Origin: Lysobacter silvisoli
GTDB taxonomy: Bacteria > Pseudomonadota > Gammaproteobacteria > Xanthomonadales > Xanthomonadaceae
Assembly (NCBI RefSeq): GCF_003382365.1
Contig: NZ_QTSU01000001.1
Location: forward strand, 1 to 64,000
Reading direction: 5' to 3'
DNA length: 64,000 nt
The translations under genes and the position numbers were made by a program. The stretch's first letter is position 1; each line of letters opens with the position of its first letter. The notes under the pieces were generated by a model. The model did not search any database. It was not told the origin of the DNA and was given only the letters and a program-made list of their open reading frames with translations. Of the stretch, positions 42,602-52,646 are shown piece by piece.

Positions 42602-46834
<4,233 letters not shown>

Positions 46835-46895: not shown

Positions 46896-46923
46896 GGCGG
46901 CCTCCCGCCAAGTAACGTATAGT
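46896..46923 (+). promoter_or_regulatory. Upstream promoter of the str operon
   Basis: TATAGT at 46918-46923 is a good -10; the -35 near 46895-46900 is poor. A start near 46930 would put the 5' UUCG hairpin and the shared stem-loop at the beginning of the transcript, as in the S10 operon. Confidence 0.4.
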
Positions 46924-46936
46924 TAGCAATTCGGAT

Positions 46937-46992
46937 GGCCCTTCGGGGCCTCCCAGATCACGAAATGAGGCGCAGGGAGCGCCTCGTGTTCG
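46937..46992 (+). promoter_or_regulatory. str leader element: UUCG hairpin plus shared bulged stem-loop
   Basis: First a GGCCC-TTCG-GGGCC-type hairpin (46937-46950). Then CGAA (61-64), A65, T66, GAGG (67-70) and CGC (71-73) pair with TTCG (89-92), T87, G86, CCTC (82-85) and GCG (79-81), numbers being the last two digits after 469. G46988 is bulged and the loop is AGGGA. A stem with the same bulge position and an AGGAC loop lies in the S10 leader at 52054-52087. Confidence 0.6.
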
Positions 46993-47078
46993 GCCCAGGG
47001 TAGGGCGGGATCGCCAGAAGTAGAACGACCAGACCGGCACGGCAACCCCGTGGACGCTTGGCGTTCCGATAGCTCGCG

Positions 47079-47108
47079 TTGACGGTAACGTCGGACGCGG
47101 GCTATACT
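47079..47108 (+). promoter_or_regulatory. Main promoter of the str operon
   Basis: TTGACG (47079-47084) and TATACT (47103-47108) are 18 bases apart, 88 bases before rpsL. It is one of the best sigma-70 matches in the window. Confidence 0.65.
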
Positions 47109-47195
47109 TTTTCGTCTCGGTGGGCCGGGTGCATTCGGCTTGCCGCTCGTTTCTCCACGTAGTGGCTACACCGGCCCCTCACCAAAGAGTTCCTG

Positions 47196-47570
47196 ATGGC
47201 AACGATCAACCAGCTCGTCCGCAAGCCGCGGCAGGCGACCACCTACAAGAGCGCCTCGCCGGCGCTGGCGAACTGCCCGCAGCGTCGCGGCGTTTGCACC
47301 CGCGTTTACACCACCACCCCGAAGAAGCCGAACTCGGCGCTGCGCAAGGTGGCCAAGGTGCGTCTGACCAACGGTTACGAGGTCATCTCGTACATCGGCG
47401 GCGAAGGCCACAACCTGCAGGAGCACAGCGTGGTGCTGATCCGCGGCGGCCGCGTCAAGGACCTGCCGGGCGTGCGCTACCACACCGTGCGCGGCTCGCT
47501 CGACGCCGCCGGCGTGGCCAAGCGCCGCCAGAGCCGTTCCAAGTACGGCGCCAAGCGTCCGAAGAGCTGA
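47196..47570 (+). CDS. rpsL: 30S ribosomal protein S12
   Basis: A 124-aa protein of the decoding centre. The segments [20 protein letters not shown] (about 41-60) and [17 protein letters not shown] (about 84-100) carry the lysines (K43 and K88 in E. coli) whose change gives streptomycin resistance; both are wild type here. First gene of the str operon, with GAGTTCC-type weak ribosome site upstream. Confidence 0.99.
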
Positions 47571-47656
47571 TCCGTACGGGCTCGTGCCCGGAACAGCTAG
47601 GGCGGCCATGCGTGGCCGCACTTTCCATCAAAAGCATCTGATTCAGGCGAATAAAC

Positions 47657-48124
47657 ATGTCGCGTAAAGGCTCCACTCCGCAGCGTTCGGTCCTGCCCGA
47701 TCCCAAGCACGGCAGCGAAACGATCGCGCGCTTCATCAATATGGTCATGCAGAGCGGCAAGAAGTCCGTCGCCGAAAAGATCGTCTACGGCGCCATGGAC
47801 GTGATCGGGGAGAAGAACCCGAACGCGCTCGAGCTGGTCGAAAAGGCCCTCGGCAACGTCTCGCCTTCGGTCGAAGTGAAGTCGCGCCGCGTCGGCGGCG
47901 CCACCTACCAGGTGCCGGTCGAAGTGCGTTCCTCGCGCCGTATGGCCCTGGCGATGCGCTGGCTGATCGAGTCGGCGCGCAAGCGCGGCGAGAACACCAT
48001 GCCGCGCAAGCTGGCCGCCGAACTGCTCGACGCCTCGGAAAACCGCGGCGGCGCGATCAAGAAGCGCGAAGAGACCCACCGCATGGCGGAAGCGAACAAG
48101 GCGTTCGCCCACTACCGCTGGTGA
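47657..48124 (+). CDS. rpsG: 30S ribosomal protein S7
   Basis: A 155-aa protein that organises the 30S head and contacts E-site tRNA. It starts [20 protein letters not shown]; conserved segments include [20 protein letters not shown] and [20 protein letters not shown]. In other bacteria S7 represses its own operon by binding the rpsL-rpsG spacer. Here that spacer is 86 bases. Confidence 0.99.
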
Positions 48125-48133
48125 TCGCAGCGC

Positions 48134-48178
48134 CCCGGGCCTTCGCGCCCGGGCACCGGCAGCGCGCCGCGCGCTGCC
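48134..48178 (+). terminator. Two tandem hairpins between rpsG and fusA
   Basis: CCCGGGC/GCCCGGG (48134-48140 with 48147-48153) is followed by GGCAGCGCG/CGCGCTGCC (48158-48166 with 48170-48178, perfect 9 bp). They may lower or process the transcript between rpsG and fusA. Confidence 0.45.
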
Positions 48179-48268
48179 TTGGCGGTTGCATAACCGCCTA
48201 GCGAACCGGAGGCCGCCCACGAGGCGGCGTCCGGCCATCTGGAATTCGAAAACTTACGAGAGGGTCCC

Positions 48269-50386
<2,118 letters not shown>

Positions 50387-50459
50387 TCAGAATCCCGCGG
50401 GCCGGCGAGTCCGGCCCGCTTCCAAGCATTCAACTAGCAACTTTAAAGAGAGATTAGCC

Positions 50460-51650
50460 ATGGCTAAGGGTAAGTTCGAGCGCACCAAGCCGCACGTGAA
50501 CGTGGGCACCATCGGTCACGTCGACCACGGCAAGACCACGCTGACGGCCGCTCTGACCAAGGTCGGCGCCGAGCGTTTCGGTGGCGAGTTCAAGGCATAC
50601 GACGCGATCGACGCGGCGCCGGAAGAGAAGGCGCGCGGCATCACGATCTCGACGGCGCACGTGGAATACGAAAGCCCGAACCGTCACTACGCGCACGTGG
50701 ACTGCCCGGGCCACGCCGACTACGTGAAGAACATGATCACGGGTGCGGCGCAGATGGACGGCGCGATCCTGGTGTGCTCGGCCGCTGACGGTCCGATGCC
50801 GCAGACCCGCGAGCACATCCTGCTGTCGCGTCAGGTCGGCGTGCCGTACATCGTCGTGTTCCTGAACAAGGCCGACATGGTGGACGACGCCGAGCTGCTC
50901 GAGCTGGTGGAGATGGAAGTGCGCGAGCTGCTGTCGAAGTACGACTTCCCGGGCGACGACACCCCGATCATCAAGGGCTCGGCCCGTCTGGCGCTGGAAG
51001 GCGACCAGTCGGAGATCGGCGTGCCGGCGATCATCCAGCTGGTGGAAGCGCTGGACACGTTCATCCCGGAGCCGCAGCGCGACGTGGATAAGCCGTTCCT
51101 GATGCCGGTGGAAGACGTGTTCTCGATCTCGGGCCGCGGCACCGTGGTGACCGGCCGTATCGAGCGCGGCATCATCAAGGTGGGCGACGAAATCGAAATC
51201 GTCGGTATCCGTCCGACCCAGAAGACGACGGTCACCGGCGTGGAAATGTTCCGCAAGCTGCTGGACCAGGGTCAGGCGGGCGACAACGCCGGTCTGCTGC
51301 TGCGCGGCACCAAGCGCGACGACGTGGAGCGCGGCCAGGTGCTGTGCAAGCCGGGTTCGATCACCCCGCACACCGAGTTCGAGGCCGAGGTGTACGTGCT
51401 GTCGAAGGACGAGGGCGGCCGTCACACCCCGTTCTTCAAGGGCTACCGTCCGCAGTTCTACTTCCGCACCACGGACATCACCGGTGCGGTGACGCTGCCG
51501 GAAGGCGTGGAAATGGTCATGCCGGGCGACAACATCAAGATGGTGGTGAGCCTGATCAACCCGGTGGCGATGGACGAAGGCCTGCGTTTCGCGATCCGCG
51601 AAGGCGGCCGCACCGTCGGCGCCGGCGTGGTGGCGAAGATCATCAAGTGA
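50460..51650 (+). CDS. tuf: Elongation factor Tu, second copy
   Basis: EF-Tu of 396 aa in the str operon (tufA position, after fusA). The protein is identical to the copy at 32593-33783. DNA identity covers all but codons 2 and 5 and runs about 57 bases beyond the stop, then ends in a REP-like repeat. An AAAGAGAGA site precedes the start. The upstream DNA is unrelated to that of the first copy, so conversion is limited to the gene and its terminator. Confidence 0.98.
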
Positions 51651-51697
51651 CGAACTGACCGGGCGCGCCCTGCGCGCCCGGCTCTGTCAGTTCGTCA
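51648..51697 (+). terminator. Nested hairpin starting at the second tuf stop codon
   Basis: The same 12-bp perfect outer stem (51648-51659 with 51686-51697) and GC-rich inner stem as after the first tuf gene. It probably ends the str operon. Confidence 0.65.
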
Positions 51698-51833
51698 TCC
51701 CCGCGAAGGCGGGTATCCAGGGCTCTTCGTGCGAGGACTCCTCGGTCACTGGATTCCCGCTTTCGCGGGAATGACAGCCGAAGAGATGCGAGCCCCCTCG
51801 GTCTCTGGATCCCCGCCTACGCGGGAATGACGG
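51694..51833. repeat. Three REP-like palindromes
   Basis: Units with a CCCGCG/CGCGGG core are at about 51694-51720, 51751-51776 and 51809-51833, in alternating orientation. Same family as 27300-27387, 33828-33856 and 36512-36541. Confidence 0.7.
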
Positions 51834-51887
51834 ACCAAAGGGCTCGCAGCCCCGGATAGTGATCCAGTCTCACCCAGCAACGATCCA

Positions 51888-51908
51888 GCGGCGGCCCCGG
51901 GCCGCCGC
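51888..51908 (+). terminator. GC-rich hairpin before the S10 promoter
   Basis: GCGGCGGCC (51888-51896) pairs perfectly with GGCCGCCGC (51900-51908). It is followed by GCTTTA, so termination would be weak. Confidence 0.4.
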
Positions 51909-51977
51909 GCTTTACCCAGGTCCGGCCGCCCCTGAATAGGGCGTCCGGGCGGTCCGCACGGCCACCAGGCAGGGTGC

Positions 51978-52007
51978 TTGCATCGCTCCTGCGTATCCGG
52001 CTAGAAT
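51978..52007 (+). promoter_or_regulatory. Promoter of the S10 operon
   Basis: TTGCAT (51978-51983) and TAGAAT (52002-52007) are 18 bases apart; transcription would start near 52014, followed by the two leader hairpins. Confidence 0.65.
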
Positions 52008-52018
52008 GCGCGACCACC

Positions 52019-52087
52019 GTGCCAGTCCTGCTAAATCCAGGGCGGCACGACCAGCGAAATGAGGAGCAGGACGCGCCTCGTATTCGC
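52019..52087 (+). promoter_or_regulatory. S10 leader element: 5' hairpin plus bulged stem-loop shared with str leader
   Basis: GTGCC (52019-52023) pairs with GGCAC (52044-52048) over an inner TCCTG/CAGGG stem. Then GCGAA (54-58), A59, T60, GAGG (61-64) pair with TTCGC (83-87), T81, G80, CCTC (76-79), numbers being the last two digits after 520. A52082 is bulged, exactly where G46988 is bulged in the str leader; the loop is AGGAC. L4 regulates the S10 leader in E. coli, but this stem does not obviously resemble that site. Confidence 0.6.
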
Positions 52088-52334
52088 CAGACAGGGATAT
52101 GTCGCACGGCCTCGCTCCGTACGTTCCGGGCCCCTACGGGCTTCCAAGGAACGCTAGACGGAGCGTTTCGTGCGTTCTGCTCAGTCTGGGGCGGGTCGGG
52201 AAACCGGCCTGCTTTCGTTTTTTCCAGGCAAGGAAGCTCCGGGGCGAGGGTGCTGCCCTGGAGTGTTTGCGTTTTCGTGGGGCTCGGCACACCCAGAAGC
52301 CGGCCCGTCGCTCTTTCAACCAAGGAATTCCGTC

Positions 52335-52646
<312 letters not shown>

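What the first reader, a model, noticed from the sequence alone, without database searches (positions are those of the whole stretch)
46937..52087. Same bulged stem-loop in the str and S10 operon leaders
46961-46992 (before rpsL) and 52054-52087 (before rpsJ) can fold into the same structure: outer CGAA/TTCG, a GAGG/CCTC core reached through an A-T and a T-G pair, a single bulged purine on the 3' side at the same place (G46988, A52082), and an AGGRM loop. Each follows a -10-like site by about 30-40 bases and a separate 5' hairpin (46937-46950; 52019-52048). The primary sequences differ in the upper stem and at the bulge while the fold stays, and both are followed by a CAGGGTA- or CAGGGATA-like stretch. 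One shared regulator, for instance a ribosomal protein or a small RNA, could coordinate both operons. It could also be a known leader motif that I do not recognise.
Basis: partly seen in the sequence, partly recalled or inferred. Interest (0 to 1): 0.8.

Follow-up and report, generated by a model that had tools for sequence, protein, structure and literature searches.

The report
Shared RNA hairpins in ribosome operons
In Lysobacter-like bacteria two major ribosomal-protein operons begin with the same conserved pair of RNA hairpins, a control element that matches no family in the RNA library searched and may let one regulator, possibly the RNA-binding protein RsmA, set both operons together.

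Summary
The stems at 46961-46992 (before rpsL) and 52055-52086 (before rpsJ) are the only strong sites of their kind in the 4.5-Mb genome (61.3 and 55.1 bits; next 18.9). A covariance model finds one or two copies in 162 of 299 genomes of the order. 59 of 61 fetched and tabulated model hits and 78 of 80 listed pattern hits from genome contigs lie before rpsL or rpsJ. In 55 distinct ungapped copies 9 of 13 pairs show two-sided changes. No Rfam family reaches its gathering score at either leader.

Three features were missed. GGA sits in the apical loop of 79 of 80 copies. A second small hairpin follows; a second GGA lies 18-24 nt from the first in 69 of 80, but not in the rpsL leaders of the window's genus (0 of 20). 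Both leaders share a terminator-like second block, again only two strong sites in the genome.

The loops match published CsrA/RsmA sites. Best reading: a shared leader RNA with an RsmA landing pad upstream of an attenuator-like hairpin. The regulator is inferred; the conserved lower stem may bind another factor, such as a ribosomal protein.

The parts
46961..46992 (+). hairpin 1 of the str leader: 13-pair stem with internal loop/bulge (G46988), apical loop AGGGA
   Evidence: R1 61.3 bits (R1 was built with this copy among 25)
46993..47006 (+). hairpin 2 of the str leader, GCCC-AGGGTA-GGGC; its loop lacks GGA, as in all 20 rpsL leaders of this genus examined
46956..47012 (+). possible closing pairing GATC 46956-46959 with GATC 47009-47012 around both hairpins; the next GGA (47008-47010) overlaps the 3' arm
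   Evidence: folds; GATC on both sides seen in many rpsL leaders of the genus
52055..52086 (+). hairpin 1 of the S10 leader: same stem, bulge A52082, apical loop AGGAC (CAGGACG)
   Evidence: R1 55.1 bits (R1 was built with this copy among 25)
52090..52103 (+). hairpin 2 of the S10 leader, GACA-GGGATA-TGTC, GGA in loop
   Evidence: flank-swap test
46933..46953 (+). 5' hairpin of the str leader (sequence poorly conserved)
   Evidence: conservation 0.21-0.53
52018..52049 (+). 5' hairpin of the S10 leader (sequence poorly conserved)
   Evidence: conservation 0.29-0.50
46918..46923 (+). -10-like TATAGT upstream of the str element (candidate P1; no good -35 seen)
   Evidence: not found by the consensus scan
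51978..52007 (+). candidate S10 P1: TTGCAT-18-TAGAAT
   Evidence: AGAATGCGCG block conserved 0.70 in 38 rpsJ leaders; below the threshold
47079..47108 (+). candidate str P2 promoter TTGACG-18-TATACT, downstream of the element
   Evidence: 1 found, 0.0 expected; TTGAC and GCTATACT in the consensus of 42 rpsL leaders
47114..47158 (+). second shared block: GTCT + hairpin GGTGGGCCGG...CGGCTTGCC + T-rich tail (terminator-like; stem 47118-47145)
   Evidence: 1 terminator-like site found, 0.5 expected by shuffles; R3 44.7 bits (R3 was built with this copy among 20)
52184..52227 (+). second shared block in the S10 leader: GTCT + hairpin GGGCGGGTCGG-GAAA-CCGGCCTGC + CGTTTTTT (terminator-like; stem 52188-52215)
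   Evidence: 2 terminator-like sites found in the region, this one and 52236-52264; 0.8 expected; R3 44.5 bits (R3 was built with this copy among 20)
47196..47570 (+). rpsL (S12), first gene of the str operon
   Evidence: TIGR00981
52335..52646 (+). rpsJ (S10), first gene of the S10 operon
   Evidence: NF001861/TIGR01049, (scanned as 52332-52646)

Best explanation
Shown by sequence: a cis-acting leader RNA is shared by the str and S10 operons of Lysobacterales and is found essentially nowhere else in these genomes. It is made of a long hairpin with a fixed internal loop and a GGA apical loop, a second small hairpin that usually has GGA in its loop, and further down a terminator-like hairpin with a T-run. 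Inferred: the GGA hairpins are bound by RsmA (CsrA), one dimer spanning both where both carry GGA, on transcripts that come from the upstream promoters or by read-through from rpoC and tuf. Binding then changes the fate of that leader: it protects the RNA from 5'-end-dependent decay, as reported for flhDC and Xanthomonas hrpG, and/or changes passage through the downstream terminator-like hairpin. The output of S12-S7-EF-G-EF-Tu and of the S10 operon would thereby follow RsmA activity together. The strictly conserved lower stem probably has a second reader that I cannot name.
For: Loop motif: GGA in 79 of 80 copies. 30 of 38 rpsJ and 12 of 42 rpsL loops read CAGGA(U/A/C)G; 25 of 42 rpsL and 6 of 38 rpsJ loops read CANGGA; 73 of 80 fit one or the other. 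A CsrA review gives CAGGA(U/A/C)G as the CsrB repeat, RUACARGGAUGU as the SELEX site and ANGGAN as the RsmE-bound loop (PMC7652899, passages). Second GGA: 18-24 nt from the first in 69 of 80 copies; its flanks pair better than swapped flanks (65 distinct, mean stem 3.92 against 2.97, 0 of 1000 permutations as high). CsrA-family gene: in 56 of 60 genomes, this one included. Precedents: CsrA protects flhDC by binding two sites near the 5' end; RsmA of Xanthomonas citri binds a GGA loop in the 5' UTR of hrpG and seems to stabilise it (PMC3937308, passages). RNA strand: 52 G.U against 7 A.C cells. Terminator-like block specific to the same two leaders in this genome. An attenuator upstream of Xanthomonas rpsL was shown before as a prediction (PMC2965389, passages).
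Against: No binding or expression data. Hairpin 1 is long and stable with mostly 5-nt loops, whereas most SELEX hairpins had four or fewer contiguous pairs and 6-nt loops. In the window's own str leader and in all 20 rpsL leaders of its genus examined, hairpin 2 has no GGA, so a dimer spanning two loops is not supported there. The element lies 106-211 nt (rpsL) or 180-284 nt (rpsJ) before the gene, so SD-blocking does not apply simply. RsmA does not explain why the lower stem is as conserved as the start of the coding sequence. CsrA is also present in families with no listed element, so co-occurrence proves nothing. In the X. citri paper the hrpC and hrpE leaders have GGA but did not bind RsmA; in RsmU changing all four predicted GGA did not abolish binding (PMC7694677, passages). 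GGA alone is a weak predictor. The terminator-like hairpins taken singly are not above chance, and a stricter script found a hairpin plus T-run in only 22 of 38 rpsJ and 11 of 42 rpsL leaders.
Confidence: 0.4

Rival explanations
1. Autogenous control: a ribosomal protein encoded in one of the two operons binds the conserved lower stem/internal loop of both leaders and causes termination or decay; the GGA loop is part of that protein's site.
For: Position in leaders of exactly two ribosomal-protein operons. Lower stem CGAAA(U/A)GAG / CUCG(U/A)NUUCG conserved in both. The S10 operon of E. coli is attenuated by L4 and str is controlled by S7 (PMC10931766, passages).
Against: No convincing rRNA look-alike: in this genome's rRNA loci a 7-nt match CTCGTGT in 16S, a few 10-mers with two mismatches, no match to the 8-mer CTCGTGTT. 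E. coli S7 acts between rpsL and rpsG, not upstream of rpsL. GGA in two separate loops with freely varying stems is not expected of such a site.
Confidence: 0.28
2. An RNA antiterminator of the put kind: the two stem-loops bind elongating RNA polymerase directly and carry it through the terminator-like hairpin downstream and along the long operons.
For: Two adjacent stem-loops with non-canonical internal pairs, upstream of a terminator-like hairpin; putRNA is about 70 nt of two stem-loops with non-canonical pairs (PMC9378689, passages).
Against: No sequence comparison with put RNAs was made. The GGA loops and the free variation of hairpin 2's stem are not explained. At str the terminator-like hairpin also begins a few bases after the P2 promoter-like site, whose transcripts would lack the element.
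Confidence: 0.13
3. A processing or stability element at the joint between operons (rpoBC to str, tuf to S10), cut by an RNase; its products could also soak up RsmA as a sponge.
For: In 21 of 42 rpsL leaders the element begins 15-30 nt after the stop codon of the longest upstream frame, leaving little room for a promoter (automatic frame call). An mRNA-derived RsmA-binding RNA is reported in Xanthomonas campestris (RsmU, PMC7694677, passages).
Against: Two-sided changes together with fixed loops go beyond a generic double-stranded cleavage site. In rpsJ leaders a conserved -10-like block lies upstream of the element.
Confidence: 0.1
4. A leader peptide (ATG AGG ... CTC GTN TTC) is what is conserved, and the hairpin is incidental; the bulge is the wobble base of a Val codon.
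For: In this genome both stems can be read ATG AGG (C/A)GC AGG ... CGC CTC GT(G/A) TTC (read by eye); the bulge varies as a Val third base would.
Against: The ATG is kept in 55 of 80 copies only (31 of 42 rpsL, 24 of 38 rpsJ); upper-stem length varies so that 21 of 80 are out of frame; ATG to ATT in part of the genus goes with a pair-restoring change on the other arm; I see no SD upstream by eye.
Confidence: 0.03

Closest known systems
CsrA/RsmA-bound mRNA leaders (E. coli flhDC; Xanthomonas hrpG) and CsrB repeats
   Same: GGA in hairpin loops; CAGGA(U/A/C)G and ANGGA loops; mostly two sites close together in a long leader far from the gene start
   Different: Hairpin 1 has a long, strictly conserved lower stem with an internal loop; confined to two ribosomal-protein operons; binding untested
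rpsL-leader attenuators (Naville and Gautheret 2010)
   Same: Predicted premature terminator upstream of rpsL, Xanthomonas among the genera shown (passages)
   Different: Their figure was not seen, so I cannot say that it is the same hairpin; in the passages read nothing is said of the upstream GGA hairpins or of sharing with rpsJ
E. coli S10 leader (L4-mediated attenuation)
   Same: Long structured rpsJ leader with a terminator-like hairpin (passages)
   Different: In E. coli L4 is described as regulator of its own S10 operon; no Rfam match here; the L4 site was not compared in detail
HK022 put RNA
   Same: Two adjacent stem-loops with non-canonical pairs (passages), upstream of terminators
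   Different: Phage element; no sequence link examined; in the passages read the loops are not described as GGA-based

Membership tests
CsrA/RsmA target leader | GGA in a hairpin loop, with ANGGA or CAGGA(U/A/C)G context | tested here: met
   GGA 79 of 80; 73 of 80 in one of the contexts CANGGA or CAGGA(U/A/C)G
CsrA/RsmA target leader | two sites close enough for one dimer | tested here: inconclusive
   18-24 nt between GGA1 and GGA2 in 69 of 80 copies, but 0 of 20 rpsL leaders of the window's genus have GGA in hairpin 2
CsrA/RsmA target leader | short weak stem and six-nt loop as in SELEX ligands (a preference, not a requirement) | tested here: not met
   hairpin 1 has about 13 pairs and mostly a 5-nt loop; hairpin 2 is closer to the SELEX form
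CsrA/RsmA target leader | regulator present | tested here: met
   CsrA family gene at G000:C1:1640279-1640434; 56 of 60 genomes, this one included
CsrA/RsmA target leader | protein binds and alters expression | not testable with these tools
   needs gel shift and mutants
Autogenous ribosomal-protein leader | structured leader of the protein's own operon | tested here: met
Autogenous ribosomal-protein leader | resembles the protein's rRNA site | tested here: inconclusive
   only short string matches in this genome's rRNA; no three-dimensional comparison
Rfam families (all 4227 models of release 15) | score at or above gathering | tested here: not met
   only five tRNAs in the window; at the leaders the permissive scans gave 4 and 2 sub-threshold matches, best rsmX 19.7 bits against 56 and Moco 16.8 against 36
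put RNA | acts on RNA polymerase without a protein factor | not testable with these tools
   needs in vitro transcription
Leader peptide / uORF | conserved start codon and frame | tested here: not met
   ATG 55 of 80, in frame 59 of 80
Intrinsic terminator (second block) | G+C-rich hairpin followed by a T-run | tested here: met
   for the window (1 and 2 sites against 0.5 and 0.8 expected). Relatives: 68 of 80 by a loose automatic pick that does not always choose the same hairpin, 33 of 80 by a stricter one. Termination itself was not tested

The most novel reading that the evidence does not exclude
A composite leader RNA, present at the front of the two operons that make S12/S7/EF-G/EF-Tu and the S10 group, reads two signals at once: RsmA through GGA loops and a ribosome-linked factor through the fixed lower stem. 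It feeds both into a shared attenuator, so that an order of bacteria ties ribosome output to the carbon/lifestyle regulator; the abundant leaders would in turn titrate RsmA in proportion to ribosome synthesis.
Probability: 0.2. Interest if true: 0.82.

Novelty: new variant of a known kind. Interest (0 to 1): 0.6.

Why it matters
Ribosomal-protein leaders are usually special to one operon and one feedback protein (established knowledge). One covarying element shared by two operons, with a second shared terminator-like block, makes coordinate control of the two operons directly testable. If RsmA reads it, ribosome synthesis in Lysobacterales (Lysobacter, Stenotrophomonas, Rhodanobacter, Dyella and others) would be wired directly to the Csr/Rsm network. 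It also gives ready covariance models for a motif that Rfam release 15 does not match.

Tried and rejected
Leader peptide: rejected. rRNA mimicry: a resemblance of CUCGUGU to 16S around h35-h36, recalled from E. coli, shrank to a 7-nt match and a few two-mismatch 10-mers. Known Rfam leader: none. Spread outside the order: 11 of 369 genomes of the class passed E 0.01; five strong ones are in two families of this order; the other six score 20.8-27.1 bits, four of the six as partial alignments, and none of the six lies before rpsL or rpsJ. Wider genomic use: other own-genome matches of R1 are at or below 18.9 bits. CsrA co-occurrence: not informative. Literature: ten searches were allowed and all were used; no title or abstract start listed there describes a shared rpsL/rpsJ element. 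I saw no measured start sites for these genes; supplements were not available.

Dropped or partial: of the matches I fetched a part and none weaker than about E 0.0014. From the 69 model hits, 8 that repeat a locus already held were left out, leaving 61. L118 and L119 (23.7 and 23.3 bits, not before rpsL or rpsJ) and L017 (stem aligned badly in A1) were left out of the 80-copy set, as were further loci of near-identical genomes. That set includes loci first found with the window's own leaders as DNA queries, so 'all 80 before rpsL or rpsJ' is partly circular; searches are less so. Of 80 leaders, tried 28 and cut 27 second blocks; 20 of the 27 went into A4 and R3 and 9 into. Of the 117 or more stretches, 80 were listed and examined.

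Full report
What is there. The window belongs to a genome of 4.54 Mb in 7 contigs. Gene order is rpoC 42602-46834, rpsL, rpsG, fusA, tuf 50460-51650, rpsJ, rplC. The two stems lie in the rpoC-rpsL and tuf-rpsJ gaps. Both fold as described, better than any of 200 shuffles.

Conservation. In 60 genomes (this one and 59 relatives) the str-leader query matched 36 and the S10-leader query 31 at E 0.001. A few of these matches fall on the other operon's copy (for example G028, G029, G030, G048) and one genome, G047, matched only another part of the str query. In the most distant hits little more than the stem remained. A model built from 25 stems, both window copies among them (R1), scored 61.3 and 55.1 bits at the two sites and at most 18.9 elsewhere in the genome. 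Over 151 genomes of the order it matched 71 at E 0.1, weak chance matches included. A second model from 80 copies (R2) matched 162 of 299 genomes at E 0.001, each with one or two copies. By my tally of that listing, 79 are from the window's family, 73 from family f12 and 10 from f2, f3 and f5. Outside the order nothing convincing appeared: 11 of 369 genomes of the class passed E 0.01, and the six outside the order score 27.1 bits or less and lie before neither rpsL nor rpsJ.

Gene specificity. Of 61 fetched and tabulated model hits 59 lie upstream of rpsL or rpsJ; the two others are weak. The listed hosts with names are mostly Lysobacterales such as Lysobacter, Luteimonas, Dyella, Rhodanobacter, Frateuria, Pseudoxanthomonas, Stenotrophomonas, Dokdonella and Arenimonas; a few records carry other labels.

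Is it RNA? In 55 distinct ungapped copies 93.7% of cells pair and 9 of 13 pairs have two-sided changes (39 cells), against at most 16 cells when the partner is slid. On the model-fitted alignment 10 of 13 pairs change on both sides and the covariation score is 0.203 against 0.083 shuffled (fitted, so it leans to the structure). On the first, MAFFT, alignment it is 4 of 13. None of these controls is phylogeny-aware. G.U cells outnumber A.C cells 52 to 7, which fits transcription of the + strand.

Anatomy. Hairpin 1 has a nearly fixed lower stem, CGAAA(U/A)GAGG with CCUCG(U/A)NUUCG, interrupted by an internal loop; the 'bulge' is any base. The upper stem varies with compensation. The apical loop holds GGA in 79 of 80 copies; the exception is L130. 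Loops read CAGGA(U/A/C)G in 30 of 38 rpsJ and 12 of 42 rpsL copies and CANGGA in 25 of 42 rpsL and 6 of 38 rpsJ copies. A second hairpin follows directly. GGA occurs within 30 nt in 78 of 80, unpaired in the predicted fold in 64 of 80, and its flanks pair better than swapped ones (0 of 1000 as good). In the window's own str leader the second loop is AGGGTA without GGA, and hairpin 2 has no GGA in 0 of 20 exceptions, that is in none of the 20 rpsL leaders of the genus examined.

A second shared block. Further down, many leaders of both operons carry GTCT(S)GGCAGGCCGG...CCGGCCTGCC and a T-rich tail. A model of it from 20 copies, both window copies among them (R3), finds 47114-47158 at 44.7 bits and 52184-52227 at 44.5 bits, next 23.4, in this genome. 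It looks like an intrinsic terminator. Singly such sites are not above chance in these regions (1 found against 0.5 expected at str, 2 against 0.8 at S10, the second S10 one at 52236-52264); the argument is that the same hairpin recurs. A strict script found a hairpin plus T-run in 22 of 38 rpsJ and 11 of 42 rpsL leaders, a loose one in 32 of 38 and 36 of 42, not always the same hairpin. At str the block begins a few bases after a promoter-like site (TTGACG-18-TATACT). A loose pattern found such a site in 28 of 42 rpsL and 14 of 38 rpsJ leaders; in this genome the rpsJ one is not recognisable although the block is kept. An attenuator upstream of Xanthomonas rpsL was predicted in 2010 (PMC2965389, passages read, figure not seen).

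Which RNA carries the element. In 21 of 42 rpsL leaders the element starts 15-30 nt after the stop of the longest upstream frame, taken to be rpoC, so there it must largely be on read-through RNA. In rpsJ leaders a -10-like block is conserved about 45 nt upstream. In this genome neither upstream promoter passes a consensus scan.

Mechanism. The loop motifs equal those described for CsrA: CsrB repeats CAGGA(U/A/C)G, SELEX RUACARGGAUGU, RsmE-bound ANGGAN (PMC7652899, passages). A CsrA family gene is present in 56 of 60 genomes, this one included. CsrA stabilises flhDC by binding two sites near the 5' end, and RsmA of X. citri binds the hrpG 5' UTR and seems to stabilise it (PMC3937308, passages). 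E. coli CsrA is reported to control ribosome hibernation genes (PMC10746276, search listing and abstract start only). I therefore favour RsmA binding to the GGA hairpins that changes decay or passage through the second block. Only the anatomy and conservation are shown; binding, direction of effect and the role of the terminator-like block are inferred. Against it: a long stable hairpin 1 with mostly 5-nt loops, no GGA in hairpin 2 of the genus' rpsL leaders, GGA-bearing leaders that did not bind RsmA, RsmU still bound without its GGAs, and a lower stem conserved beyond what RsmA needs. Autogenous control by a ribosomal protein remains the main rival, and a put-like antiterminator is possible (PMC9378689, passages).

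Novelty. No Rfam family reaches its gathering score at either leader, and the permissive scans give only sub-threshold matches. The ten literature searches listed no description of a shared rpsL/rpsJ element; this covers the open-licence library only. I file it as a new variant of a known kind: a structured leader RNA, unusual in being shared by two operons and in carrying CsrA-type loops.

Noticed in passing
window 52310-52320 (+): boxA-like GCTCTTTCAAC just upstream of the rpsJ SD (1 match in the window, 0.05 expected). GCTCTTT(0-2 nt)AAC or GCTCTTTA in 26 of 38 rpsJ leaders and 0 of 42 rpsL leaders (the rpsL pattern was faulty and was rerun in 82). S10 is NusE, which binds boxA with NusB (recalled), so S10 feedback through boxA could be tested.
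   Followed up: partly
window 47079-47158 and 52184-52227: A promoter-plus-hairpin block (TTGAC...TATACTTTTCTGTCTSGGCAGGCC) recurs in leaders of both operons in several families; in this genome's rpsJ leader the promoter part is not recognisable but the hairpin is kept.
   Followed up: partly
window about 52110-52165: Long G+C-rich predicted hairpin between the element and the terminator-like block of the S10 leader, low sequence conservation across the order.
   Followed up: no
rpsL leaders of relatives, e.g. L078, L061, L131: The element starts within about 15-30 nt of the rpoC stop codon, so it doubles as the rpoBC 3' UTR.
   Followed up: partly
genus g37 genomes, e.g. L109, L110, L112: Each g37 genome listed carries a single copy; those inspected are rpsJ leaders, and in L109-L112 the stem has drifted (GGGAAAGCAGG...CCUUGUGUUCCCC) while the loop CAGGAUG stays.
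   Followed up: no
order-wide, families f7, f8, f9: Most f9 genomes listed lack a CsrA family match, and no f9 genome is among the matches; many f7 and f8 genomes have CsrA but none is among those matches either.
   Followed up: no
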